Assembly: GCA_903887845.1 (NCBI GenBank) | Contig: CAISRC010000016.1 | Location: 1 to 40,865, forward strand | DNA length: 40,865 nt | Source of the DNA: an uncultured Chlorobiaceae bacterium | GTDB lineage: Bacteria; Bacteroidota; Chlorobiia; Chlorobiales; Chlorobiaceae | Reading direction: 5' to 3' | Shown: positions 2,695-24,410 of the stretch, in pieces | Numbering within the stretch: the stretch's first letter is position 1 | Layout of the letters: every line of letters begins with the position of its first letter | The notes under the pieces: generated by a model | What the model saw: only the letters and a program-made list of their open reading frames with translations | Told to the model about the DNA's origin: nothing | The model's database searches: none | Translations under genes and position numbers: made by a program

Positions 2695-2937
2695 TATCAA
2701 AAAAAGATCAGGGAACTGCTTCTTCTCGGTGAACATCAGCGTCTCGAATTCAAGACATTGGCAAAAAGCTCTGTGTGTCGTGATGACTGCGGCTTTCTCA
2801 ACTCAGGCAGAGAAGAACGACAAGGGTTGAAACTCACTCACTCAGGCACATCTTCGTGGTGCATTGCTTTTTTTTGTGTCCATGAACAAGCTTTTTTGTA
2901 TGTTTACGGACAAGGTATAGTATACCTCTTGTAACGC
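2695..2937 (+). pseudogene. Possible fragment of an AlbA_2/Schlafen-type ATP-binding protein
   Basis: A plus-strand frame with no plausible start codon encodes IRELLLLGEHQRLEFK (about 2707-2754). This resembles the N-terminal entry of AlbA_2 (divergent AAA_4/Schlafen-like) domains. The match fades after roughly 18 residues and the frame ends at TAA near 2935-2937. It may be the stub of a gene deleted when the hip module arrived, or chance. Evidence is limited to the short motif. Confidence 0.3.
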
Positions 2938-2991
2938 TTTTGTGACAACAAGAATGCAAATTATTGTATTGTATAGAGCTAAGACTATACA
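2914..2991. promoter_or_regulatory. Two dyad symmetries upstream of yajC
   Basis: Two perfect inverted repeats lie in the stretch before yajC: GGTATA-G-TATACC (2914-2926) and TGTATAG-N8-CTATACA (2970-2991). They use the same TATACC/TATAG vocabulary as the hip operators, with opposite half-site orientation in the first. They may be operators for the yajC operon or further HipB sites. No convincing -35/-10 pair could be fixed. Apart from these and the short AlbA-like fragment, the 464 bases between hipB and yajC hold nothing recognisable. Confidence 0.4.
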
Positions 2992-3049
2992 TACATTGCA
3001 GTAATGCTCACCAAAAAGCTGTTATTTTTTTTAATATCACGACCCTGTT

Positions 3050-3406
3050 ATGCACAATACTCTACTGTCACTACTTCTTTTCGCACCTCCCGTCGCAGGT
3101 CAGGCGGCACCAAACCCATTGATTCAGATTGTCCCGTTAGTCCTTATCTTTGTTGTCTTTTATTTCTTCATGATTCGCCCTCAGCAGAAAAAACAGAAAG
3201 ACCGGGAAAAGGTGCTTGACAGCCTGAAACGAGGCGACAAAATTGTCACCATTGGCGGCGTTCATGGTACTGTTGCAGGAATTGATACAGAGAAGAAAAC
3301 TGTTCTTGTTCAGGTCAGTGATTCCACAAAAATCACGTTTGACCGCACCGCCATTGCCAATATTGACAAGCAGGATTCGGGCGATAAACTCACGACCAAA
3401 GAGTAA
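3050..3406 (+). CDS. yajC: Sec translocase accessory subunit YajC
   Basis: A 118-residue single-pass membrane protein of the YajC family, the SecDF-associated part of the holotranslocon. A hydrophobic N-terminal segment and the transmembrane helix [17 protein letters not shown] are followed by the family hallmark [10 protein letters not shown]. Next comes a cytoplasmic domain with [17 protein letters not shown]. It opens a tight plus-strand run; carA follows after 10 bases. Pairing with carA rather than secD suggests a rearranged order compared with Proteobacteria. Confidence 0.95.
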
Positions 3407-7883: not shown

Positions 7884-8324
7884 ATGACTATGAAACCCTT
7901 TCTGCCTTTTTTGACAGCGGGCCTTCTTTGCCTTGGCGCCTGTGGCCTTGAGAAGCCACCTGCCTCCCTCAAATTTCCTGATGAAAAGAAAGAAGCGGCC
8001 GCACCTGCGCCAGAAGCTGCTGCACCTGCTGCTGCACCTGCCGCAACTGAAGCTCCGGCAGACCCAAAACTGGCGGCAGGTAAAACTGTGTATGACGCCA
8101 GTTGTGCGGGATGTCACGAGGCGGGCATGATGGGTGCCCCAAAACCGGGCGACAAAGCCGCATGGAGTGCTCGTATAGCAAAAGGTCTGGATGTCATGAC
8201 GAAAAATTCACTCCAGGGATTCACGGGTAAAGCGGGCATGATGCCGGCAAAAGGCGGCAATTCAGCTCTGACTGATGAACAGGTGACAAACGCCGTCGCC
8301 TTCATGGCAGATAAATCGAAATAA
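7884..8324 (+). CDS. Monoheme c-type cytochrome lipoprotein (cytochrome c5-like)
   Basis: A 146-residue secreted heme protein. The N-terminus is a lipoprotein signal with lipobox LCLGAC, followed by an Ala/Pro/Glu-rich linker (about residues 30-65). The heme domain has CAGCH as its single CxxCH motif. KPGDKAAWSARIAKG and later Met-containing GKAGMMPAKGG offer candidate sixth ligands, as in cytochrome c5-type proteins. It probably works in the periplasm, anchored to a membrane, as an electron carrier. The ATG at 7884 is chosen to give a complete lipoprotein signal; an upstream in-frame start (7842) would add a non-signal extension. A terminator follows immediately, so it appears monocistronic. 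Confidence 0.88.
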   Translation: MTMKPFLPFLTAGLLCLGACGLEKPPASLKFPDEKKEAAAPAPEAAAPAAAPAATEAPADPKLAAGKTVYDASCAGCHEAGMMGAPKPGDKAAWSARIAKGLDVMTKNSLQGFTGKAGMMPAKGGNSALTDEQVTNAVAFMADKSK

Positions 8325-8339
8325 AATATCATTGCGAGC

Positions 8340-8373
8340 GGGAGCTGTAGTACAACAGCTCCCCTTCTTTTTA
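8340..8373 (+). terminator. Intrinsic terminator after the cytochrome gene
   Basis: GGGAGCTGT (8340-8348) pairs perfectly with ACAGCTCCC (8355-8363) around a 6-base loop. A T-rich tract TTCTTTTTAT follows. Confidence 0.8.
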
Positions 8374-8455
8374 TCGGCTTCACAGCAGAACTGATTTCAG
8401 TTACCCTCCCGCCATAGAACATGCACCTGTCTCATACACAAAAATTCTTTGTATC

Positions 8456-9256
8456 ATGACCCCTCTCCATATTGGCTTTGTCGGAACAGGAAGAATTGCC
8501 CGGGCTCTTATTGGAGGCCTCAGCCAGAGAGAGAACACTCTGATTTCAGGTTTTGACAAGGAGCCTGCTGCACTCTCTGCCATTTCCGCCGATTACCCCG
8601 TGCAGCCCTGCCTGTCGATTGAAGAGGTCGCACGGAAAGCGCAAGTCATCATCCTTGCCGTCAAACCCTACCAGATTGCAGAGGTGCTCGACAAACTGAA
8701 ACCATCACTCAATGCCGATCACCTTATGATCAGCGTTGCTGCGGGTATCTCGTCGGAGTTTATCAGAAAAAATGCAAAGGAAGAGCTGAAAGTCATCAGA
8801 GTTATGCCCAATACTCCCGCTTTCGTTGGCGAAGGCATGACCGCTCTCTGCCGTGGCAAAATGGCGACAGATAAGGATCTCGCCCTTGCCAGTGAGCTCT
8901 TCAGTTCGATAGGCAAGGTGCTCATTCTTGATGAATCGCAGATGGATGCAGCAACAGCACTCTCCGGCAGCGGTCCAGCCTATATGTTCTCTGTTCTTGA
9001 CTCGCTGGCCGAAGGGGGAAGGCTGAGCGGCCTCTCTTATGATGAAGCGCTGCTTCTTGCTGCGCAAACCATGATCGGTGCGGCAAAAATGGTGCTGTCC
9101 GGCACAAAAAATCCTGATGAACTCAAACGAGATGTCACGACGCCTGGAGGAACAACAGAAGCCGGACTGAAGGTCATGGATGGACATAATATCAGGCAGA
9201 TTCTTGTAAAAACCGTTGCCGCCGCTGCGGCCCGTTCCAGAGAACTCATGAAATAA
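8456..9256 (+). CDS. proC: Pyrroline-5-carboxylate reductase
   Basis: ProC reduces 1-pyrroline-5-carboxylate to L-proline with NAD(P)H, the last step of proline synthesis. The 266 residues match the family size. The N-terminal dinucleotide-binding motif is GFVGTGRIARALIGGL. VRVMPNTPAFVGEGMTAL and the C-terminal substrate-binding signature ALSGSGPAYMF with TPGGTTEAGL are present. The stop is followed after 5 bases by the BatD-like gene, so the two are likely cotranscribed. Confidence 0.97.
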   Translation: MTPLHIGFVGTGRIARALIGGLSQRENTLISGFDKEPAALSAISADYPVQPCLSIEEVARKAQVIILAVKPYQIAEVLDKLKPSLNADHLMISVAAGISSEFIRKNAKEELKVIRVMPNTPAFVGEGMTALCRGKMATDKDLALASELFSSIGKVLILDESQMDAATALSGSGPAYMFSVLDSLAEGGRLSGLSYDEALLLAAQTMIGAAKMVLSGTKNPDELKRDVTTPGGTTEAGLKVMDGHNIRQILVKTVAAAAARSRELMK

Positions 9257-9261
9257 TCATT

Positions 9262-10608
9262 ATGGCCAAAAGCTTGCCTCTTAAGCGGTACTGCGCTCTC
9301 TTCTGGCTTATCATCACATCCCTTTGCGCTCCAGCAATTACAGGGGCATCAGGGAGTCCGGATAAGCCGTTTCTTGTTTCTTCAATAAGCAGCACAAGCC
9401 CTTTTGTTGGCCAGGAAATTCTTTTGACCTATACACTCTATTTCAAGAATGCTGCACCAAAAATATCCGCTGAAACCAACCCTTCACTGCAAGGTTTATG
9501 GGCAAAGGAGAGCATACCTGACCACTTTATCAAAAGCATTCCAGCCACAGTTCAGGGAGAGCGCTTCAGAAGCGCCATTGTCAAGCAGTTCAGACTGGTG
9601 CCTATTCAGAGCGGGAGTATCACAGTTTCAGGCTACAACATGCAGTGCGTTCTACCACAGCAACAGGTTGCGACCAATGGAAATGAGTTGCCCGATACGC
9701 CTTTAAAATTAACAGCGCCTCCCATTATCATCTCCGCACGCGCTCTTCCCGAACCAGTTCCGGAAGGATTCTCAGGTGCCGTCGGTGACTTTTCGCTTAC
9801 CCTTCTCTCCGATAAAGAACATCTGAGGGTTGGCGAACCGTTATCCGTGAAACTCACGCTCACAGGAAAGGGAAGCCTGCTGACCCTGGAACTTCCCGTT
9901 GTTCACCTCCCCGAAAGTTTCCGGCAAAACCCACCCGAAAGAACGACAACCCTCAACAAAGAGTCAGAGCTCAGCTCAGGCTCCATAACCTCTACAATTC
10001 TTGCCTGGCCTCAATCGGAGGGTGAGTTTCAAATCACGGCACCTCGTCTTGTTGTTTTCAATCCTGCAACAAAACAATTCAGCACACTTCCTGCAAAGCC
10101 GCTTGCCTTAACAGTAACAGCAGCAGTGCAAGGTATAATGACAAACGAAAAAGAGCCTTCTGACGCAACCCCGGAAAAAATGAGAGACTTCTCTCCGCTT
10201 ATCACCAATACAGCAATCATAATAGTATTGCTGCTCTGTGGCGTTGCCATAGCAAGAGCAAGAAAAATAATAGTACAGAAGAGAGAGAAGATACAACGTG
10301 ATGCTGCGTCAGAACTCAAGCCTGATATGGGAAAATCAGCCGGAAAAATGAAACAGCAGCTTTTCACCATGCTTGAAGAGGCAGGAATAAAAAGCCCGGG
10401 AGGCATGACCCGGAGTGAGCTGAAACAGGCTCTGCTGGAGATCAACATTACCGATGAGCGTCGAACAGAACTCCTGACGGTGCTTGATGCATTAGACATG
10501 ATCATCTACTGTCCCGCCGGGACAACAGAGACAGGAATCCCTGAATGGATTCCTGCAAAAGTTACTGTTCTGCTGAATGAATTGAACAAGGCGGGAGGGG
10601 CTCGCTGA
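9262..10608 (+). CDS. BatD-like exported protein with C-terminal transmembrane helix
   Basis: A 448-residue protein with an N-terminal signal peptide ending near ITGASGSP. The repeated beta-sandwich region contains the BatD hallmark FVGQEILLTYTLYFKN and VGEPLSVKLTLTGKG. One transmembrane helix (NTAIIIVLLLCGVAIA, about residue 315) precedes a cytoplasmic helical tail with GGMTRSELKQALLE. BatD proteins are part of the Bat aerotolerance/moxR-linked clusters of Bacteroidetes and Chlorobi and probably act in envelope assembly; the biochemistry is unknown. No BatA/BatB or MoxR gene is adjacent. Its last 47 bases overlap the convergent GDPD gene. Confidence 0.75.
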   Translation: MAKSLPLKRYCALFWLIITSLCAPAITGASGSPDKPFLVSSISSTSPFVGQEILLTYTLYFKNAAPKISAETNPSLQGLWAKESIPDHFIKSIPATVQGERFRSAIVKQFRLVPIQSGSITVSGYNMQCVLPQQQVATNGNELPDTPLKLTAPPIIISARALPEPVPEGFSGAVGDFSLTLLSDKEHLRVGEPLSVKLTLTGKGSLLTLELPVVHLPESFRQNPPERTTTLNKESELSSGSITSTILAWPQSEGEFQITAPRLVVFNPATKQFSTLPAKPLALTVTAAVQGIMTNEKEPSDATPEKMRDFSPLITNTAIIIVLLLCGVAIARARKIIVQKREKIQRDAASELKPDMGKSAGKMKQQLFTMLEEAGIKSPGGMTRSELKQALLEINITDERRTELLTVLDALDMIIYCPAGTTETGIPEWIPAKVTVLLNELNKAGGAR

Positions 10609-12148: not shown

Positions 12149-12610
12149 ATGAAGCTTCTGGTTGCAATCGATTTCTCTGAACTTGCCGGGAGAGTTATTG
12201 CTGAAGCAGAAAAACTTGCAAAAAGCCTCTCGGCACAAGTTTTTCTGCTTCATGTCATTCCACCCTCCTCACCAATTCTTGATGTACCTCCAGAAGTCGA
12301 AACATTGCTCCCCGCTCAAAAGACGCATAATAACGAGGGTTTTCCGCTCAGCGAAGAGCCTGAATCCAAGAGACTTCTGACTGTTGCCGCAAAGCTGCAG
12401 GAAAAAGGCATTGATACCTCAGTCATTATTGCACAAAACGACGAGGTTACGGCGATTATCGGTGAAAGCAAGAAAAACAGTGTTGATATGATCATGCTTG
12501 GATCGCATGGACACGGAGCACTTTTTCACCTGCTCATTGGCAGCGTCTCGGAAGGAGTAATCCGGCAGGCATCCTGCCCGGTCATTATCGTGCCTTCAAA
12601 AAAGTGGTGA
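12149..12610 (+). CDS. Universal stress protein (UspA family)
   Basis: A single-domain Usp of 153 residues. It starts with the typical strand KLLVAIDFSELAGRVI and ends with the nucleotide-binding signature GSHGHGALFHLLIGSVSEGVI, followed by CPVIIVP. This is the ATP-binding subclass (G-x2-G-x9-G-S). It follows the Pmp3-type gene by 9 bases and converges on leuA. No strong terminator is seen in the 56-base gap. Confidence 0.92.
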   Translation: MKLLVAIDFSELAGRVIAEAEKLAKSLSAQVFLLHVIPPSSPILDVPPEVETLLPAQKTHNNEGFPLSEEPESKRLLTVAAKLQEKGIDTSVIIAQNDEVTAIIGESKKNSVDMIMLGSHGHGALFHLLIGSVSEGVIRQASCPVIIVPSKKW

Positions 12611-16465: not shown

Positions 16466-17053
16466 CTATTTCTGCAGTCGATCAAGCAACCTGTTGAGTT
16501 GCAGAACATTAACCAGTGACTCATTCAATACGGGAATGGTGGTTGTTCCACTTGCAGGATTATTGATGACACTCATCACCTGATCGCAGGAGATACCTCT
16601 TGCACGAGCCACTCTCGGCACCTGAAATATAGCCGCATCAATGGAGATGTGAGGATCAAGACCGCTGCCTGAAGCCGTAACAAGATCGGCTGGAACCTTT
16701 TCACCTTTTTTTGGAGAAAGCGCAGCAAGCAGTTTTTCTGTCCTTTGGCGCATCACGAGAGATGCGGGTGAGAGGTTGCTGCCTCCAGATCCTGAGGCAT
16801 TCCATGAGACTGCCGAAGGTCGAGGCCAGAAATATTCTGGCCGAGTAAACTGCTGGGCAAGAAGTGTACTGCCGATAACCTCTCCGTTTTCAGCACGGAC
16901 AAGTGACCCTGATGAAGAACCGGGAATTACCCGAGCAGCCATAAGAATAACTAACGTGTAGAGTAAACTGCAGATAAGAACGGTTAATGGAAGCAGACGT
17001 AATGATACCCAACATTGCCGGGTAAGCTCCCTGAACGATAGTATTGTTGTCAT
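16466..17053 (-). CDS. kdpC: Potassium-transporting ATPase subunit C
   Basis: A 195-residue KdpC with one N-terminal transmembrane helix (LLPLTVLICSLLYTLVIL). Its periplasmic domain has the family motifs QFTRPEYFWPRPSA, ASGSGGSNLSP, LVTASGSGLDPHIS and FQVPRVARARG. KdpC stabilises the KdpFABC complex and supports potassium binding by KdpA. It starts 17 bases after the kdpB stop. Confidence 0.97.
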   Translation of the reverse strand: MTTILSFRELTRQCWVSLRLLPLTVLICSLLYTLVILMAARVIPGSSSGSLVRAENGEVIGSTLLAQQFTRPEYFWPRPSAVSWNASGSGGSNLSPASLVMRQRTEKLLAALSPKKGEKVPADLVTASGSGLDPHISIDAAIFQVPRVARARGISCDQVMSVINNPASGTTTIPVLNESLVNVLQLNRLLDRLQK

Positions 17054-17070
17054 GATAGTAACACGTTTGC

Positions 17071-19155
17071 TTAAACAAGAGCGGTCAATGCAAGAACCAT
17101 ATCAATCAGCTTGATGCCGACAAAGGGCACCATGACGCCTCCCAAACCATAGATAATCAGATTTTTACGAAGGAGGGTATCGGCTCCCATCGGGCGATAT
17201 TTAACGCCCCTGATAGCAACAGGTATCAGCAGAGGAATGATAATGGCATTAAAAATCAATGAGGAGAGAATTGCGCTTTCGGGTGTCGCAAGATGCATGA
17301 TATTGAGGACCTGAAGCCCTGGTATTGCCAGAACAAACATTGCCGGAATAATGGCAAAGTATTTTGCGACATCGTTGGCGATAGAAAACGTCGTCAGCGC
17401 ACCTCGCGTCATAAGCAACTGTTTGCCGATTTCGATAATCTCAATGAGTTTTGTTGGATCACTGTCGAGATCGACCATATTTCCCGCCTCTTTGGCCGCC
17501 TGGGTACCGGAGTTCATAGCGACTCCAATATCAGCCTGGGCAAGCGCTGGCGCATCATTGGTGCCATCCCCCATCATGGCAAGAAGTCTTCCGCTCTGCT
17601 GTTCTTTTCGTATATAATGCAGTTTGTCTTCGGGACGCGCTGAGGCAATGAAATCATCGACGCCAGCCTGGGCTGCAATGGCTGCGGCAGTAAGTGGATT
17701 GTCACCGGTCACCATCACCACGCGCAAACCCATGGCACGAAGACGGGCAAAACGGTCGTAGATGCCGGGTTTGAGAATATCGGAAAGAGCAATCACACCA
17801 AGAAGCTCCTTACCTTCAGCGACAGCAATAGGGGTCATGCCCTTGCGGGCAACATCATCAACCAACCCCTGTAATGTTTCGGAGACCGTTCCGCCCAATC
17901 TTGCACAATAGTTTATGAGTGTATCAGGCGCACCTTTGCGGAGGCTCTGACCATCGGGGAAATCAATACCACTCATTCGGGATTGAGCTGAAAACGGCAC
18001 AACTTTTCCTTCACCATCATAAACAGCCTTTATGCCCAACGTTTTTTCAGCAAGAGTAATAATTGATTTTCCTTCAGGCGTCTGATCGCCGAATGATGCC
18101 TTCATGGCAATCGAAGCAAGACGATCCCTGCTGATACCCGGCAAAGGAAAATAATCCGTTGCCTGTCGGTTGCCCATGGTGATGGTACCGGTCTTGTCAA
18201 GAAGGAGTGTGTCAATATCTCCGGCAAGCTCCACGGCTTTGCCGCTCTTTGCCAGCACATTGGCAGAAAGTGCCCGATCCATACCAGCAATCCCTATGGC
18301 GGAAAGCAGTGCTCCAATGGTGGTCGGAATAAGGCAGACAAGGAGAGCTACCAGCGTCGGCACAGGAAGGGTTATACCAAAATATTTACCGATTGGCCAG
18401 AGTGTACCCGTTACCATTAAAAACGCCAGCGTAAGACCTGCAAGGGTCACCGTCAGAGCAAGTTCATTGGGTGTTTTCTGCCTGACGGCCCCCTCGACGA
18501 GGGCGATCATTTTATCAAGAAAGGAGTGTCCTGATGAAACGGCAATACGAACAACGATATAATCCGAGATGACTCGTGTTCCTCCGACAACTCCGGATCG
18601 ATCGCCACCAGCCTCTCTTACTACCGGTGCTGACTCTCCGGTAATGGCCGATTCATCAACCAGAGCGGCCCCTTCAATAATCTCGCCATCTCCAGGAATA
18701 ATTTCCCCGGTCAAGACAATAACCCGGTCACCTTCCTGGAGTTCGTCAGAATTTACGGATTCCTCTTTACCATCACTTACTCTTCTTGCAACCGTATTCT
18801 GGCGTGTACGTTTGAGACTCTCCGCCTGGGCCTTGCCCCGGGCTTCCGCCAGGGCTTCGGCAAAGTTTGAAAACATCACCGTAAGCCACAATATGAGCAT
18901 GACCGTTACGGTATAGAGTTGGTGTCCAACTCCACTCATGGCATTGACACCTGCAATAAGTGTTGTCAGCACGGCTCCTGCTTCAGTAACAAACATGACA
19001 GGATTTTTTACCATAGCCCTTGGGTCAAGCATCACTATTGAGCGTCGAAGTGCGCTGATAACAAGCTCCTTTTGAAAAATAGAGCTTTTTTTCATCTGAC
19101 GACGCTCGAATTTAGCCTGATCAGAGGGATGTGGCAGAGAATGACTGTTCATCAT
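17071..19155 (-). CDS. kdpB: Potassium-transporting P-type ATPase subunit B
   Basis: KdpB is the P-type ATPase subunit that powers high-affinity potassium uptake in KdpFABC at the inner membrane. The catalytic phosphorylation motif DKTGTITMGNR, the TGES actuator loop (DESAITGESAPV) and the hinge MMGDGTNDAPALAQADIGVAM are complete. GMTPIAVAEGKELLGV is also present. The start ATGATG at 19155, 5 bases after the kdpA stop, gives 694 residues, close to the usual length. The longer frame up to 19344 lies inside kdpA and is rejected. Confidence 0.97.
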   Translation of the reverse strand: MMNSHSLPHPSDQAKFERRQMKKSSIFQKELVISALRRSIVMLDPRAMVKNPVMFVTEAGAVLTTLIAGVNAMSGVGHQLYTVTVMLILWLTVMFSNFAEALAEARGKAQAESLKRTRQNTVARRVSDGKEESVNSDELQEGDRVIVLTGEIIPGDGEIIEGAALVDESAITGESAPVVREAGGDRSGVVGGTRVISDYIVVRIAVSSGHSFLDKMIALVEGAVRQKTPNELALTVTLAGLTLAFLMVTGTLWPIGKYFGITLPVPTLVALLVCLIPTTIGALLSAIGIAGMDRALSANVLAKSGKAVELAGDIDTLLLDKTGTITMGNRQATDYFPLPGISRDRLASIAMKASFGDQTPEGKSIITLAEKTLGIKAVYDGEGKVVPFSAQSRMSGIDFPDGQSLRKGAPDTLINYCARLGGTVSETLQGLVDDVARKGMTPIAVAEGKELLGVIALSDILKPGIYDRFARLRAMGLRVVMVTGDNPLTAAAIAAQAGVDDFIASARPEDKLHYIRKEQQSGRLLAMMGDGTNDAPALAQADIGVAMNSGTQAAKEAGNMVDLDSDPTKLIEIIEIGKQLLMTRGALTTFSIANDVAKYFAIIPAMFVLAIPGLQVLNIMHLATPESAILSSLIFNAIIIPLLIPVAIRGVKYRPMGADTLLRKNLIIYGLGGVMVPFVGIKLIDMVLALTALV

Positions 19156-20840: not shown

Positions 20841-20921
20841 TTAAAATTTCTCAGGATTGACAATGGCAAAAACCAGGTAAACCATGCAGGCGAGAAAAGT
20901 GAGTAATACCACAATATCCAT
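20841..20921 (-). CDS. kdpF: KdpF small stabilising subunit
   Basis: A 26-codon ORF encodes one transmembrane helix ending in the typical KdpF tail (YLVFAIVNPEKF). KdpF sits between KdpA and KdpB and stabilises the complex. It has a good ribosome binding site, GGAGG, 6 bases before the ATG and precedes kdpA in the canonical FABC order. Confidence 0.88.
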   Translation of the reverse strand: MDIVVLLTFLACMVYLVFAIVNPEKF

Positions 20922-20922
20922 A

Positions 20923-21021
20923 TTAACCTCCGATATGAAAAATGAGACCGACGAATGCTGCAAGCCCTGCAAGAATCAGAAAAATGAGTATGCCGAGATA
21001 AAGATGATGGTAGACATTCAT
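20923..21021 (-). CDS. 32-residue single-helix membrane peptide upstream of kdpF, unknown family
   Basis: A 33-codon ORF with ATG at 21021 and TAA at 20923-20925, one base before the kdpF start. It encodes MNVYHHLYLG followed by a hydrophobic helix (ILIFLILAGLAAFVGLIF) and HIGG. The kdpF ribosome binding site is formed by its last codons (GGA GGT), so the two are translationally coupled. An upstream AAGGACGGTGA is a possible ribosome binding site. I do not recognise the family; position suggests an extra Kdp-associated peptide. Confidence 0.6.
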   Translation of the reverse strand: MNVYHHLYLGILIFLILAGLAAFVGLIFHIGG

Positions 21022-21066
21022 GAGAGTCACCGTCCTTCTATTGAGTAGGCTACACCTTTATAGTAA

Positions 21067-22899
21067 TTATTGATTGTCTTGTCGGACGGGTAGAGTAAAA
21101 TAAAATACCGACCCCTTCCCTTCGACATTTTCAGCGCCAACTGTTCCTCCTTGTGCTTCAACAATCTCCTTCACAATAGAAAGCCCAAGACCGATTCCGC
21201 TTTTTGCTTTTTGGCCCGGAACCCGATAAAACCTTTCGAAAAGATGCTCAAGATGTTCAGATGCTATACCGTTCCCGGTATCTTCAACGGAGAATTTGAT
21301 CTTTTCATCCTCTTCAGCAGCGCTGATGGTTACTTTACCGCCCGGCGAGGTAAACCGCAATGCATTCGAAAGAAGGTTCGCAAAAACATGCTTGATGCGT
21401 TCCGGATCTGCTATAACGTCAGGCAATCCCTCATGAATAGTATTGACAATGGCTACCCCCTGATCAGTGGCATGAAGCATGAACGGCTCAATACCTTCGC
21501 CGCTGAGACGAAAAGGAGAAACCGGAATAATGTTCATAGGGGCTTTTCCCGATTCAATCCGGTTGAGCTCCAGAAGATCATCAAGCATACGTGCAAGCCG
21601 CTCACTCTCATCACGTGCAGACAACAACAGATCTGCCTGCTGTTCGTTGAGATGACCTATGCGTTCTTCAAGCAGAAGATGAACAGACATTCGCAACGAG
21701 GTAAGAGGGGTTCGCAACTGATGGGATACCGTAGCAATAACACTGCGCTTGAGCTCAAGCTGTTCGTGAAGCTGTGTCACATCCCTGAAGATCAGCGCTG
21801 TTCCGGTAAACTCCTCTCGCTCAGCGCTAAAAGGAACAGGTACTACCACAGGTTGAAAAAAGTACTCACTCCTCCCATCGAAATGCTGAATGTAGTCATG
21901 ACCCTCTTCCGACTCCGTTGCGGAACCCTGTCGAACCGTCTTCTGCCACACTCCCTTCAGCCAGTCATGACCGATATCCTGAACAAAAACACCCGCTTTC
22001 AACCCAAAATATCGTTCCGCAGTGTCAGTGGATACTGCAACTTGTCCATTTGCATCCAGCACCGCAATTGGCAAGGGTAGAACCTTGAACACCTCCTGCG
22101 TTACCCGCCGACTGCGATAAAGCTTGTCCTGATCGCTTTTGCGCATTTTTCGGAGAGTTGCAGCCATATCGTTAAATGATTGTGAAAGCTGCCCGATTTC
22201 ATCCTTTGAGGTGGTATCAAGAACAAGATCAAGATTGCCTTTCCGAATCTCTTCGACTGATGCGCTCAACTTTTTGATCGGCATGAGAATCCAGCGATGG
22301 GATCGAAAGCTGAACAAGAGAGCAATAAGTGCACTGGCAAAAATAGCCGAGAGCATGGTATTGTGCGCCGATGCCGCCATCTGGCGAGCATTATCGTTTG
22401 CCGCCTGCATGTTCGCCTGGTTCATCTCCAGAACCTGAGCTGAGAGTTGCTTAATTTGCTGAGAAAGCGGAAGCAGGTCAGTAAAATATCGTCGCTGGCG
22501 TTCGGGAAAAGAGATCGATAGATCTGTAACCTGTTTAATAATAAAATTATACCTAAAAAAAAGAGTATTGATTTGCATGGCTTTCTGATGTTCACCGGGA
22601 AGGGTGATATTGCCAAGCTCCACGCGAAGTGCATGACGAAAGTTTTGTTCATTCTCGTGAATAGTGGTCATTCCATCATCGTAATGACCTGCAAAGGTAA
22701 ACAAGGCGCCACTGTCAATGCGATCAAGAGACTCAGTCATTTTCTGGCAGGCAACCACACTGCGATAGTTTTGCCTGAGAATAACATCAATAGCTCCGCC
22801 AAGGGCATCAATGTGACGTATTGTAAGCACTCCTATTGCAACAACAATGAGAAGCAGACCTCCGAATCCCAGAACCAGTTTTTGTCTTATACCAATCAT
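21067..22899 (-). CDS. Membrane sensor histidine kinase (HAMP-PAS-HisKA-HATPase), KinB-like
   Basis: A 610-residue inner-membrane sensor kinase. The first transmembrane helix is at 8-28, then a helical periplasmic domain of about 150 residues, and a second helix at 183-199. HAMP follows (about 200-255, MPIKKLSASVEEIRKGNLD), then PAS (about 265-380). The dimerisation/phosphoacceptor box VSHQLRTPL has His393. The ATPase domain contains HVFANLLSNALRF, VEDTGNGIA and GIGLGLSIV. The layout resembles Pseudomonas KinB, the partner of AlgB. It lies between the NtrC-type regulator and kdpF, 45 bases before the small membrane peptide, so it is probably the first gene of the kdp transcript. AGGAG precedes the ATG. 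Confidence 0.92.
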   Translation of the reverse strand: MIGIRQKLVLGFGGLLLIVVAIGVLTIRHIDALGGAIDVILRQNYRSVVACQKMTESLDRIDSGALFTFAGHYDDGMTTIHENEQNFRHALRVELGNITLPGEHQKAMQINTLFFRYNFIIKQVTDLSISFPERQRRYFTDLLPLSQQIKQLSAQVLEMNQANMQAANDNARQMAASAHNTMLSAIFASALIALLFSFRSHRWILMPIKKLSASVEEIRKGNLDLVLDTTSKDEIGQLSQSFNDMAATLRKMRKSDQDKLYRSRRVTQEVFKVLPLPIAVLDANGQVAVSTDTAERYFGLKAGVFVQDIGHDWLKGVWQKTVRQGSATESEEGHDYIQHFDGRSEYFFQPVVVPVPFSAEREEFTGTALIFRDVTQLHEQLELKRSVIATVSHQLRTPLTSLRMSVHLLLEERIGHLNEQQADLLLSARDESERLARMLDDLLELNRIESGKAPMNIIPVSPFRLSGEGIEPFMLHATDQGVAIVNTIHEGLPDVIADPERIKHVFANLLSNALRFTSPGGKVTISAAEEDEKIKFSVEDTGNGIASEHLEHLFERFYRVPGQKAKSGIGLGLSIVKEIVEAQGGTVGAENVEGKGSVFYFTLPVRQDNQ

Positions 22900-22934
22900 C
22901 TATGATCTCCTGACATGTTCATGATTAAGTAGTA

Positions 22935-22951
22935 ATGCAAAAAGTGTACCA
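22935..22951 (-). promoter_or_regulatory. Sigma-54 (RpoN) promoter driving the kinase-kdp operon
   Basis: On the minus strand the sequence TGGTACACTTTTTGCAT fits the sigma-54 consensus TGGYACRN4TTGCW at every defined position. The -24 GG and -12 GC are 10 bases apart. Transcription would start near 22925, about 26 bases before the kinase ATG. The adjacent gene encodes a sigma-54 activator, which supports the call. Confidence 0.82.
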
Positions 22952-23078
22952 ATAATGTAATTGCTTGTAAATTAACAGAACAGCCGGGGAGAGTCGCGAT
23001 GACCCTTTGAAATTATCAAGGGCACACGAACTGCGAGCTTGCATTTTTCAAGCTGCCAGGGGCGGGGAAATCCGGCGC

Positions 23079-24410
23079 TTAAATTCCATACTGTTTTCGT
23101 TTTCTCCAGAGCGTCGCCTGATCAATACCAAGAAGCTCTGCTGCTTCTTGAAGAGATTTTGTTGAAGCAAGAATACGACGAATATGGTGCTCCTCAATAA
23201 CCTCCAGGGTTAACGGATCGCCAAGAGAGACCGTATGTATTTTTTTTACAATGCTTTCAGGAAGAAGTTCCAGTCCAATACCATCTGTTTTGCTCAAAAT
23301 AACAGCTCGTTCAATAACATTGCGTAATTCGCGAATATTGCCCGGCCACGAGTAGGTTCTGAGTGCTTGCATAGCCGTATCCGTAAATCCTTCAAGTTTT
23401 TTGTGATTCTGGGCCGCAAAAAACTTCAGCATACTCACAGCAAGCTGTTCAACATCATCAGGACGGGCTGCAAGAGGTGGCAAATCAATCTGGATAACAT
23501 TCAACCGATAAAAAAGGTCCTCACGAAAACGCCCCTCTTTTACCTCTTTTTCAAGCTCTTTATTGGTTGCGGCAATAATCCTGACATTAGCTTTGCGTGT
23601 TTGATGATCACCTATCCTTTCATACTCCCGATCCTGAATAAAGCGAAGAAGTTTTGGCTGAATTGAAAGAGGCAGGTCTCCGATTTCATCAAGAAACAGG
23701 GAACCCCCTTCACAGGAAAAGACTCGTCCCGGATTATCCCTGACAGCTCCGGTAAATGATCCCTTCACATGCCCAAAAAGCTCACTTTCAAGCAGCTCAT
23801 TGCTTAATGAAGGACAAGAGATAACCCCGAATGGTTTGTCAGCTCTGCTGCTCCAGTTATGAAGGGTACGCGCAAGCACCGTTTTGCCGGTGCCGCTCGG
23901 GCCACTTAAAAGAACAACAGCTTCAGACGAGGCAACCTGACGAGCCAACTCAACAAGCCGTTGCATAGAGGGATAACGGGTTGTAAAAGTAATCTCAGGA
24001 TGAATGCGGCTCAAATCTTCCTTCAAAGTCACAATTCGCCGCTCCATCTCACTCACTTCAGCAATACGTCTTATAACAAGATCAAGTTGATCTGGTGTAA
24101 ACGGCTTGGCAATATAGTCAGATGCACCCCGCTTAATAGCTTCGACAGCGCTCTCAATCGAAGCATAAGCAGTAATCACCACAACCTTGATCCATGGATA
24201 AGTATGAAGCATCAACTGCACCAGATCAAGCCCGTTCGCTGTTCCCAAACGCAAGTCAATAAAGACAAGATCAAACACCTGACGATCAGCCTCTGCCATT
24301 GCATCCCTGGAATTGCTGACCGCTTTCACAAAATGGCCTCGCGATTCCATAAAAACCATAAGAGTTTTGCGAATGTTGATTTCATCATCAACAATGAGGA
24401 CATTAAGCAT
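23079..24410 (-). CDS. Sigma-54-dependent response regulator, NtrC/AlgB type
   Basis: A 443-residue activator in three domains. The receiver (1-120) has acidic pocket Asp8/Asp9, phosphoacceptor Asp52 and Lys102. The AAA+ domain has Walker A GPSGTGKT (170-177), a sigma-54 contact loop GSFTGA (217-222) in place of the usual GAFTGA, Walker B SLFLDEIGDLP, and the arginine-finger region RFREDLFYRLNV. The C-terminal Fis-type helix-turn-helix ends in LGIDQATLWRKRKQYGI, which resembles AlgB. It lies directly upstream of the sensor kinase gene and the sigma-54 promoter, so it is the likely activator of the kinase-kdp operon. The 179-base gap to the kinase also contains a small dyad (AGCTTG/CAAGCT) without a U tract. 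Confidence 0.93.
   Translation of the reverse strand: MLNVLIVDDEINIRKTLMVFMESRGHFVKAVSNSRDAMAEADRQVFDLVFIDLRLGTANGLDLVQLMLHTYPWIKVVVITAYASIESAVEAIKRGASDYIAKPFTPDQLDLVIRRIAEVSEMERRIVTLKEDLSRIHPEITFTTRYPSMQRLVELARQVASSEAVVLLSGPSGTGKTVLARTLHNWSSRADKPFGVISCPSLSNELLESELFGHVKGSFTGAVRDNPGRVFSCEGGSLFLDEIGDLPLSIQPKLLRFIQDREYERIGDHQTRKANVRIIAATNKELEKEVKEGRFREDLFYRLNVIQIDLPPLAARPDDVEQLAVSMLKFFAAQNHKKLEGFTDTAMQALRTYSWPGNIRELRNVIERAVILSKTDGIGLELLPESIVKKIHTVSLGDPLTLEVIEEHHIRRILASTKSLQEAAELLGIDQATLWRKRKQYGI

What the first reader, a model, noticed from the sequence alone, without database searches (positions are those of the whole stretch)
21022..24410. Kdp potassium pump apparently placed under a sigma-54 two-component system
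Seen: an NtrC/AlgB-type activator gene, then a near-perfect sigma-54 promoter (TGGTACA-N4-TTGCA, 22935-22951) reading into a KinB-like kinase gene that runs directly into kdpF-A-B-C. Known: kdp is classically activated by KdpD/KdpE, with KdpE an OmpR-type regulator using sigma-70. No kdpE is present. Inferred: potassium limitation or envelope/turgor signals act through this kinase and an RpoN-dependent activator, with the kinase gene inside its own target operon (positive feedback).
Basis: partly seen in the sequence, partly recalled or inferred. Interest (0 to 1): 0.75.

Follow-up and report, generated by a model that had tools for sequence, protein, structure and literature searches.

The report
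Sigma-54 potassium regulator linking Kdp, KimA
In this green sulfur bacterium the potassium pump Kdp sits behind a sigma-54 promoter and a paired DNA operator that this genome otherwise holds only before a second potassium importer (KimA); in related gene sets that serve KimA without Kdp, the regulator has often lost the part that talks to sigma-54.

Summary

Comparison supports sigma-54 control. Two palindromes TTG-N7-CAA, 32 bp apart, precede the promoter. In this genome the exact pair occurs twice: here and before KimA. In the genus 18 of 19 pairs at HK promoters have the sigma-54 element, 17 at 99-100 bp; the layout recurs in an Aminicenantes and a Desulfurivibrio contig. Sigma-54 control of kdp with split KdpD is published for Desulfovibrio vulgaris, so the core is known in kind.

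New: (1) most KimA genes with the pair have a -10-like TATGTT at a fixed distance (22 of 25), the geometry of a class II sigma-70 activator. (2) In KimA modules without kdp, 11 RRs have GAFTGA Thr changed to Pro, 7 of them also an altered Walker A, receiver and HTH kept. (3) No diadenylate cyclase in 16 genus genomes searched, so EIIA-Ntr may replace c-di-AMP as KdpD input. All inferred from sequence; on the tree the association in (2) is not significant.

The parts
23079..24410 (-). NtrC-type response regulator (receiver, AAA+ with GSFTGA, Fis-type HTH)
   Evidence: Pfam hits; motifs; 48 orthologs in 39 of 65 genus genomes
23039..23051 (-). upstream activator palindrome 1, TTGAAAAATGCAA
   Evidence: coordinates; conserved pair
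23007..23019 (-). upstream activator palindrome 2, TTGATAATTTCAA, 32 bp from the first
22936..22951 (-). sigma-54 -24/-12 element TGGTACACTTTTTGCA, 100 bp from the start of palindrome 1
   Evidence: exact consensus, only one in window; element present after 18 of 19 pairs at HK promoters of the genus
21067..22899 (-). membrane histidine kinase (HAMP, HisKA, HATPase_c; PAS-like region by eye)
20923..21021 (-). 32-aa hydrophobic ORF before kdpF; a short hydrophobic ORF sits near this place in 19 of 21 hand-picked kdp loci
20841..20921 (-). kdpF, 26 aa
19160..20830 (-). kdpA
   Evidence: PF03814, TIGR00680; start chosen at the ATG visible
17071..19152 (-). kdpB (start uncertain: 19152 or 19095); carries TGES
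   Evidence: TIGR01497; TGES
16466..17053 (-). kdpC
   Evidence: PF02669
14778..16445 (-). short KdpD: KdpD N-domain + Usp-like + EIIA-Ntr domain with IPHA histidine; no kinase half
   Evidence: His472 invariant in 14 of 14; PDB best matches 2r8r for the N-domain and PtsN 3urr for the C-terminus

Best explanation
A sigma-54-dependent potassium-uptake regulon. The membrane kinase phosphorylates the NtrC-type RR (inferred). The RR binds the two palindromes at 23051-23007, about three helical turns apart, and remodels sigma-54 RNA polymerase at 22951-22936 (operator and promoter supported by conservation, action inferred). One transcript then makes the kinase (a positive loop on the kinase, not on the RR), KdpFABC and a short KdpD. 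The short KdpD is most likely the brake: its N-domain corresponds to the atypical serine kinase that inhibits KdpB in E. coli (PMC11018627), here with an EIIA-Ntr domain as probable input, since no c-di-AMP cyclase was found in the genus. In this genome the same operator pair also lies before a KimA K+ importer gene on another contig.
For: Domains. rpoN and 5 strong sigma-54 activator hits in the genome. Operator pair: 62 hits in 61 genus genomes against 12 for the reversed control; 43 of the 61 hits examined lie within 400 bp before HK or KimA; in this genome 2 hits, the kdp promoter and KimA (control 1). Of 19 pairs at HK promoters, 18 are followed by .GGYRC-N5-TTG, 17 of them at 99-100 bp and one at 199 bp. 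G063, which lacks the pair before HK, has two palindromes 31 bp apart and CGGCACGGGTTTTGCT between HK and kdp. Same layout in L104 (Aminicenantes) and L107 (Desulfurivibrio), where the pair occurs once per genome. KimA identity: PDB 6s3k, E 4e-65 for the ortholog in L032; own copy 90% identical to it. Diadenylate cyclase found in 0 of 16 genus genomes and 9 of 9 of other families of the order. HPr and EI present in this genome. Published parallel: D. vulgaris DVU3334 on kdp with split KdpD.
Against: No expression or binding data. The -12 C is present in only 10 of 18 sites. A 9-of-12 sigma-70-like match overlaps the site. One pair (L199) has no sigma-54 element after it; there HK and RR are fragments. 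Two further intact RRs (G002, G069/L200) have no site in their module, and the paralogous kdp clade has only degenerate palindromes. Of the 8 non-genus or fringe genomes searched for the exact pair, 4 had none, and the hits in G084 and G088 were not traced to kdp. In the other loci only 4 of 60 stretches before kdpA hold a strong sigma-54 match (0.21 expected by shuffling) although 48 of 60 have a sigma-54-type RR nearby. Short KdpD occurs without KdpA in 5 of 15 KdpD-bearing genus genomes, so KdpB cannot be its only partner.
Confidence: 0.8

Rival explanations
1. The HK-kdp operon is driven by an ordinary sigma-70 promoter overlapping the site; the sigma-54 match is chance.
For: TTTACA-17-TACACT, 9 of 12, overlaps the site; 11 exact sigma-54 matches exist in the genome.
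Against: GG and TTG are kept in 18 sites of relatives while the TACACT letters change (TACGGT, CACGTT, CACGCT); fixed distance to the operator; same layout in other phyla.
Confidence: 0.07
2. The two-component system senses envelope or turgor stress (AlgB/KinB-like) and potassium uptake is a secondary output.
For: The kinase lacks the KdpD N-domain and has its own N-terminal and HAMP regions; in D. vulgaris other stress regulators also target kdp.
Against: In this genome the operator pair is found only before two K+ importers, and HK stays with KimA and KdpD in modules without kdp.
Confidence: 0.15
3. The short KdpD is not (only) a KdpB serine kinase but the sensor half of the kinase in trans, or a regulator of KimA.
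For: Short KdpD lies directly after HK, with KimA before HK, in genomes where no KdpA was found: G002, G016, G020, G021, G023 (completeness 85, 98, 81, 100, 91%).
Against: Walker A GVGKT and Walker B DEL are invariant in 14 of 14, as the serine kinase needs; both roles may hold.
Confidence: 0.4
4. The operator before KimA is a repression site or a relic, not a class II activation site, or KimA uses a degenerate sigma-54 promoter; broken GAFTGA motifs mark regulators on the way to pseudogenes.
For: UAS2 would overlap the -35 region, where a repressor also acts. The KimA copy of this genome has only a 45-residue match to an RR C-terminus and TATCTT in place of TATGTT, and its best sigma-54-like match (10 of 12, without GG) is better than most shuffles, p 0.03.
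Against: Pro-type RRs show no inner stop and keep receiver and HTH (0-1 and 0 changes at invariant positions against 4-7 in AAA+); TATGTT sits at one fixed distance in 22 of 25.
Confidence: 0.35

Closest known systems
D. vulgaris Hildenborough kdp operon DVU3334-3339 (sigma-54 RR DVU3334, HK DVU3335, short KdpD DVU3336)
   Same: Sigma-54-type RR assigned to kdpFABC; HK split from KdpD/Usp (PMC3333781, PMC4641369: passages read)
   Different: No KimA target or EIIA-Ntr fusion in the passages read; the DVU3334 binding motif was not seen, so operator identity is untested
E. coli KdpD/KdpE
   Same: Two-component control of kdpFABC; KdpD N-domain
   Different: One-piece KdpD and OmpR-type KdpE with sigma-70 (recalled); here an NtrC-type RR and a sigma-54 element
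Short KdpD/Usp serine kinases (Deinococcus geothermalis; PMC11018627, passages read)
   Same: KdpD N-domain plus Usp without kinase half, downstream of the pump genes
   Different: Extra EIIA-Ntr domain; no diadenylate cyclase in 16 genus genomes; c-di-AMP motif matched in 1 of 14
NtrC of Rhodobacter capsulatus and Caulobacter, TyrR, HupR (NtrC-family proteins acting at sigma-70 promoters; PMC10274813, PMC3162934, passages read)
   Same: No working GAFTGA, receiver (in the NtrC cases) and DNA-binding part kept
   Different: Here point changes among orthologs of one genus that also holds intact forms and sigma-54 targets

Membership tests
sigma-54 promoter | GG at -24 and GC at -12, 10 bp apart | tested here: met
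   Exact in the window; in relatives, among 18 sites that the search pattern with GG and TTG found, the C of -12 is kept in 10
sigma-54 promoter | Transcription depends on rpoN | not testable with these tools
   rpoN present; no expression data
NtrC-family enhancer-binding response regulator | Receiver, AAA+ with Walker A/B and GAFTGA, HTH | tested here: met
   SGPSGTGKT, GSFTGA, LFLDEIGDL; GSFTGA is listed as a working variant in PMC4641369 (passage)
KdpD/KdpE two-component system | OmpR-type KdpE | tested here: not met
   KdpE finds only the RR receiver in the window; genome-wide not tested
KdpD/KdpE two-component system | KdpD with kinase half | tested here: not met
   Protein 16445-14778 ends with EIIA, no HisKA
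KdpD serine kinase (short KdpD) | KdpD domain with Walker motifs, Usp, target Ser in KdpB TGES | tested here: met
   PF02702 1.7e-92; the Usp match is below its cut-off (15.7 of 24 bits); GVGKT and DEL invariant; TGES in KdpB (that S162 lies in TGES is recalled)
KdpD serine kinase (short KdpD) | c-di-AMP as signal (proposed for short forms) | tested here: not met
   DAC domain in 0 of 16 genus genomes; binding motif in 1 of 14
EIIA-Ntr (PtsN) | PTS_EIIA_2 domain with phosphorylatable His | tested here: met
   PF00359 2.8e-17; PtsN structures best; His 14 of 14; HPr and EI in genome; phosphorylation not testable
KimA potassium importer (relatives, and contig C47 of this genome) | Homology to B. 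subtilis KimA | tested here: met
   6s3k E 4e-65; transport not testable

The most novel reading that the evidence does not exclude
One potassium-responsive regulator serves two kinds of RNA polymerase: from the same operator pair it fires a sigma-54 promoter at kdp and, bound at about -42 and -74, a housekeeping promoter at KimA. In modules that serve KimA without kdp, often beside a second, kdp-linked copy, the sigma-54-contacting loop (T to P or A) and often the Walker A threonine have decayed, so the genus holds before and after states of an enhancer-binding protein turning into an ordinary activator. The EIIA-Ntr domain fused to KdpD replaces c-di-AMP as the metabolic input.
Probability: 0.4. 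Interest if true: 0.78.

Novelty: new variant of a known kind. Interest (0 to 1): 0.62.

Why it matters
It places kdp of green sulfur bacteria, and perhaps of many bacteria with short KdpD, in a sigma-54 circuit that surveys looking for KdpE would miss, and ties it to KimA. The loss of the sigma-54 contact in close relatives would make the evolution of sigma-70-acting NtrC proteins directly testable by swapping single residues between close orthologs in a laboratory host. The KdpD-EIIA-Ntr fusion suggests that the PTS-Ntr to Kdp link known in Proteobacteria can be hard-wired.

Tried and rejected
Riboswitch control: the Rfam scan of the window at gathering thresholds gave only a tRNA. c-di-AMP control of the short KdpD: rejected for this genus. 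A terminator reading of the palindromes: the scan lists no terminator-like site there. A clean sigma-54 site before main-clade KimA genes: of 27 KimA rows with the pair (30 rows in all), the best match reaches p 0.05 against shuffles in 3 (L061 and L207 with canonical sites, L058 of this genome without GG); L208 has a GG/TTG site at p 0.10. Five KimA genes lack the exact pair: L028, L059, L062, L223, L224. Broad sigma-54 promoters before kdp in the named loci: weak, 4 of 60 (59 named loci and L022; the L109 row was misplaced by a slicing slip in my script). Phylogenetic correction of the GAFTGA/kdp association: at least 3 changes, 3 independent pairs, the sign test cannot reach 0.05; whether the Pro rows are one or two clades is unresolved, support 27. 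I counted Ser (G059) and VSFTGA (G020) as broken although GAFSGA forms are thought to work (PMC4641369); strictly broken are 11 Pro and 1 Ala. Rechecked: 8 of the 11 Pro rows lie in genomes with a second RR, kdp-linked in 6, at a contig end in 2, so the wording was changed and the probability of the novel case lowered from 0.45 to 0.40. The draft also held G051 and G063 to be counterexamples; one search found palindromes and a sigma-54-like site between HK and kdp in G063. In G051, TGGCATGCATTTTGCT is visible there by eye only. Not done: structure prediction, fold search, KdpE search in the whole genome, KdpA search beyond the 25 genus genomes.
Full report
What is in the window. All genes named here are on the minus strand. 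RR (24410-23079) has receiver, sigma-54 AAA+ and Fis-type HTH; HK (22899-21067) has HAMP, HisKA and HATPase; kdpA, kdpB and kdpC follow; kdpF is 20921-20841, and a 32-aa hydrophobic ORF lies before it. The last gene, 16445-14778, is a KdpD N-domain with a weak Usp-like match and a PTS_EIIA_2 domain, without kinase half. The sigma-54 site is the only exact match in the window and one of 11 in the genome, against 0 for the reversed pattern. rpoN is present. The organism is taken to be Chlorobiaceae: two named Chlorobiaceae MAG contigs carry kdp genes with this KdpD (L100 and L101), and L100 has the same length and match position as the contig L023 of the held genus genome G008.

The operator. 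Upstream of HK lie two TTG-N7-CAA palindromes 32 bp apart (23051-23039 and 23019-23007). Searching 61 genus genomes for the exact pair gave 62 hits against 12 for the reversed control. Of the 61 hits examined (the one in G042 was not fetched), 43 lie within 400 bp before HK or KimA. This genome has two: the kdp promoter and the place before its KimA gene on contig C47; its reversed control has one. KimA was identified through the match of the L032 ortholog to the solved KimA structure 6s3k; the own copy is 90% identical to that ortholog.

The promoter in relatives. One search looked at 19 exact pairs at HK promoters (18 loci; in L184 the HK gene is beyond the contig end, in L199 HK and RR are fragments). 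Of these, 18 are followed by .GGYRC-N5-TTG, 17 at 99-100 bp from the start of the first palindrome and one (L209) at 199 bp; L199 has none. The C of the -12 GC is kept in 10 of the 18. In G063 two palindromes 31 bp apart and a CGGCACGGGTTTTGCT site lie between HK and kdp instead. The layout is also found before HK-kdp in an Aminicenantes contig (L104) and a Desulfurivibrio contig (L107). Of 8 genomes searched through loci, these two hold the exact pair once each, at kdp; G084 and G088 have one hit each that I did not trace; four have none; the control has one. Against: a paralogous kdp clade has degenerate palindromes, though clear TGGCACG-N4-TTG sites, and G002 and one module of G069 have an intact RR and no site.

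Two kinds of promoter for one operator. Main-clade KimA genes (80% identity or more) with the pair mostly have no sigma-54 site. Instead TATGTT stands exactly 68 bp from the start of the first palindrome in 22 of 25 rows (17 of 19 after clustering at 90%), against 0 of 15 HK promoters. If TATGTT is a -10 box, the second palindrome is centred at about -42 and the first at about -74, the place of a class II activator (geometry recalled, not from a call). The three exceptions (TATCTT twice, TATTTT) are KimA genes, including the one of this genome, that lie after short matches to an RR C-terminus, and the own KimA promoter has a 10-of-12 sigma-54-like match without GG (p 0.03). The divergent KimA genes L061, L207 and L208 have a GG/TTG site 77-78 bp after the second palindrome.

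The regulator. One search covered the 65 held genus genomes and found 48 RRs in 39. In 11 the GAFTGA Thr is Pro, in one Ala, in one Ser, and one has VSFTGA; all 14 lie in modules without kdp, while 24 of the other 34 are kdp-linked, 5 are not and 5 are undetermined. Seven Pro rows also have GKN in place of GKT in Walker A. Eight of the 11 Pro rows lie in genomes with a second RR, kdp-linked in 6 and at a contig end in 2; G006, G016 and G072 have only the Pro form. At 159 positions invariant in 30 intact RRs, the 10 Pro rows long enough have 4-7 changes in AAA+ (T220P itself counted), 0-1 in the receiver and 0 in HTH; the Ala, Ser and Val rows have 1-3, 0 and 0; leave-one-out intact rows have 0-2, 0-1 and 0-1 (43 of 48 RRs used). 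Fisher p for broken against no kdp in the module is 1.5e-7 without regard to kinship; on the tree there are 3 independent pairs, so no significance can be claimed. Of 11 broken rows scored for a sigma-54 site in the module, 10 lack it and 1 (G021) has it; of 29 intact rows, 25 have it and 4 lack it (G063 of these 4 has it further down).

Short KdpD. Of 25 genus genomes, 15 have KdpD and 10 have KdpA; G002, G016, G020, G021 and G023 have KdpD, next to HK and KimA, without KdpA. The EIIA His is invariant in 14 of 14 and the domain matches PtsN structures best. Diadenylate cyclase is found in 0 of 16 genus genomes and in 9 of 9 others of the order; HPr in 24 of 25 genomes searched and EI in this genome. 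Matches over nearly the full fusion also occur in L102-L106, labelled with other phyla or unclassified.

Generality. Among the 80 named loci (the best KdpD matches, a biased and capped set), 60 have kdpA; 48 of these have a sigma-54-type RR in the fetched stretch, 1 a KdpE, 11 neither.

Literature (passages found by text search inside each paper, none read whole). PMC3333781: DVU3334 regulates its own kdp operon, with a split kinase. PMC4641369: DVU3334 has GAFTGA and potassium uptake as target; T to P inactivated a NifA. PMC3162934: about 110 homologs with minor GAFTGA deviations, with a preference for Pro at position 4; TyrR, DhaR and HupR are sigma-70 dependent. PMC10274813: NtrC forms without GAFTGA act at sigma-70 promoters. 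PMC11018627: the KdpD N-domain is a serine kinase on KdpB; a short form responds to c-di-AMP. PMC9239096: unphosphorylated EIIA-Ntr interacts with KdpD in several Proteobacteria. PMC8214093: c-di-AMP motif. PMC12316311: 'kdp' and 'potassium' do not occur in its main text. PMC2700814: Geobacter kdpABCDE, no sigma-54 remark in the passages. Searches for Chlorobium with KdpD and potassium (0 papers), kdp with RpoN and Chlorobi (1, on Geobacter), KimA with two-component system and sigma54 (top 15 of 129 listed) and KdpD with EIIANtr (10 listed, passages of one) showed no report of the KimA link, the fusion or the GAFTGA series; the library lacks most subscription journals.

Verdict. What deserves attention is the shared operator with two promoter types, the decay of the sigma-54 contact in modules that serve KimA without kdp, and the KdpD-EIIA-Ntr fusion without c-di-AMP.

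Noticed in passing
window 20923-21021: A 32-aa hydrophobic ORF before kdpF; a short hydrophobic ORF near the same place in 19 of 21 hand-picked kdp loci from several phyla, perhaps an overlooked small Kdp membrane peptide.
   Followed up: partly
L058 (contig C47 of this genome), 8191-10510: Own KimA gene with exact operator pair, preceded by a 45-residue match to an RR C-terminus, with TATCTT in place of TATGTT.
   Followed up: partly
L199 (G018), 2719-3215: kdp genes with operator pair, but HK and RR reduced to fragments and no sigma-54 element after the pair.
   Followed up: partly
L102, L103, L104, L105, L106: Nearly full-length KdpD-Usp-EIIA matches in contigs labelled Desulfobacteraceae, unclassified bacterium, Aminicenantes, Syntrophaceae and Phycisphaerales.
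   Followed up: partly
L118-L178, named loci mostly of Bacteroidota: kdp with short KdpD, a separate kinase after it and often a sigma-54-type RR before kdpA; clear sigma-54 sites in few.
   Followed up: partly
L209 and L204, upstream of HK: Stacked operators: L209 has an exact pair 199 bp from the sigma-54 site and, by eye, a degenerate one at the usual distance; L204 has a second pair with its own site about 500 bp further up.
   Followed up: no
L227 and L229: RR variant GAFTNA in kdp-linked RR copies; the RR match in L227 has an in-frame TAG.
   Followed up: no
window 12149-12610: Stand-alone universal stress protein gene about 2.2 kb beyond the end of the kdp operon, opposite strand.
   Followed up: no
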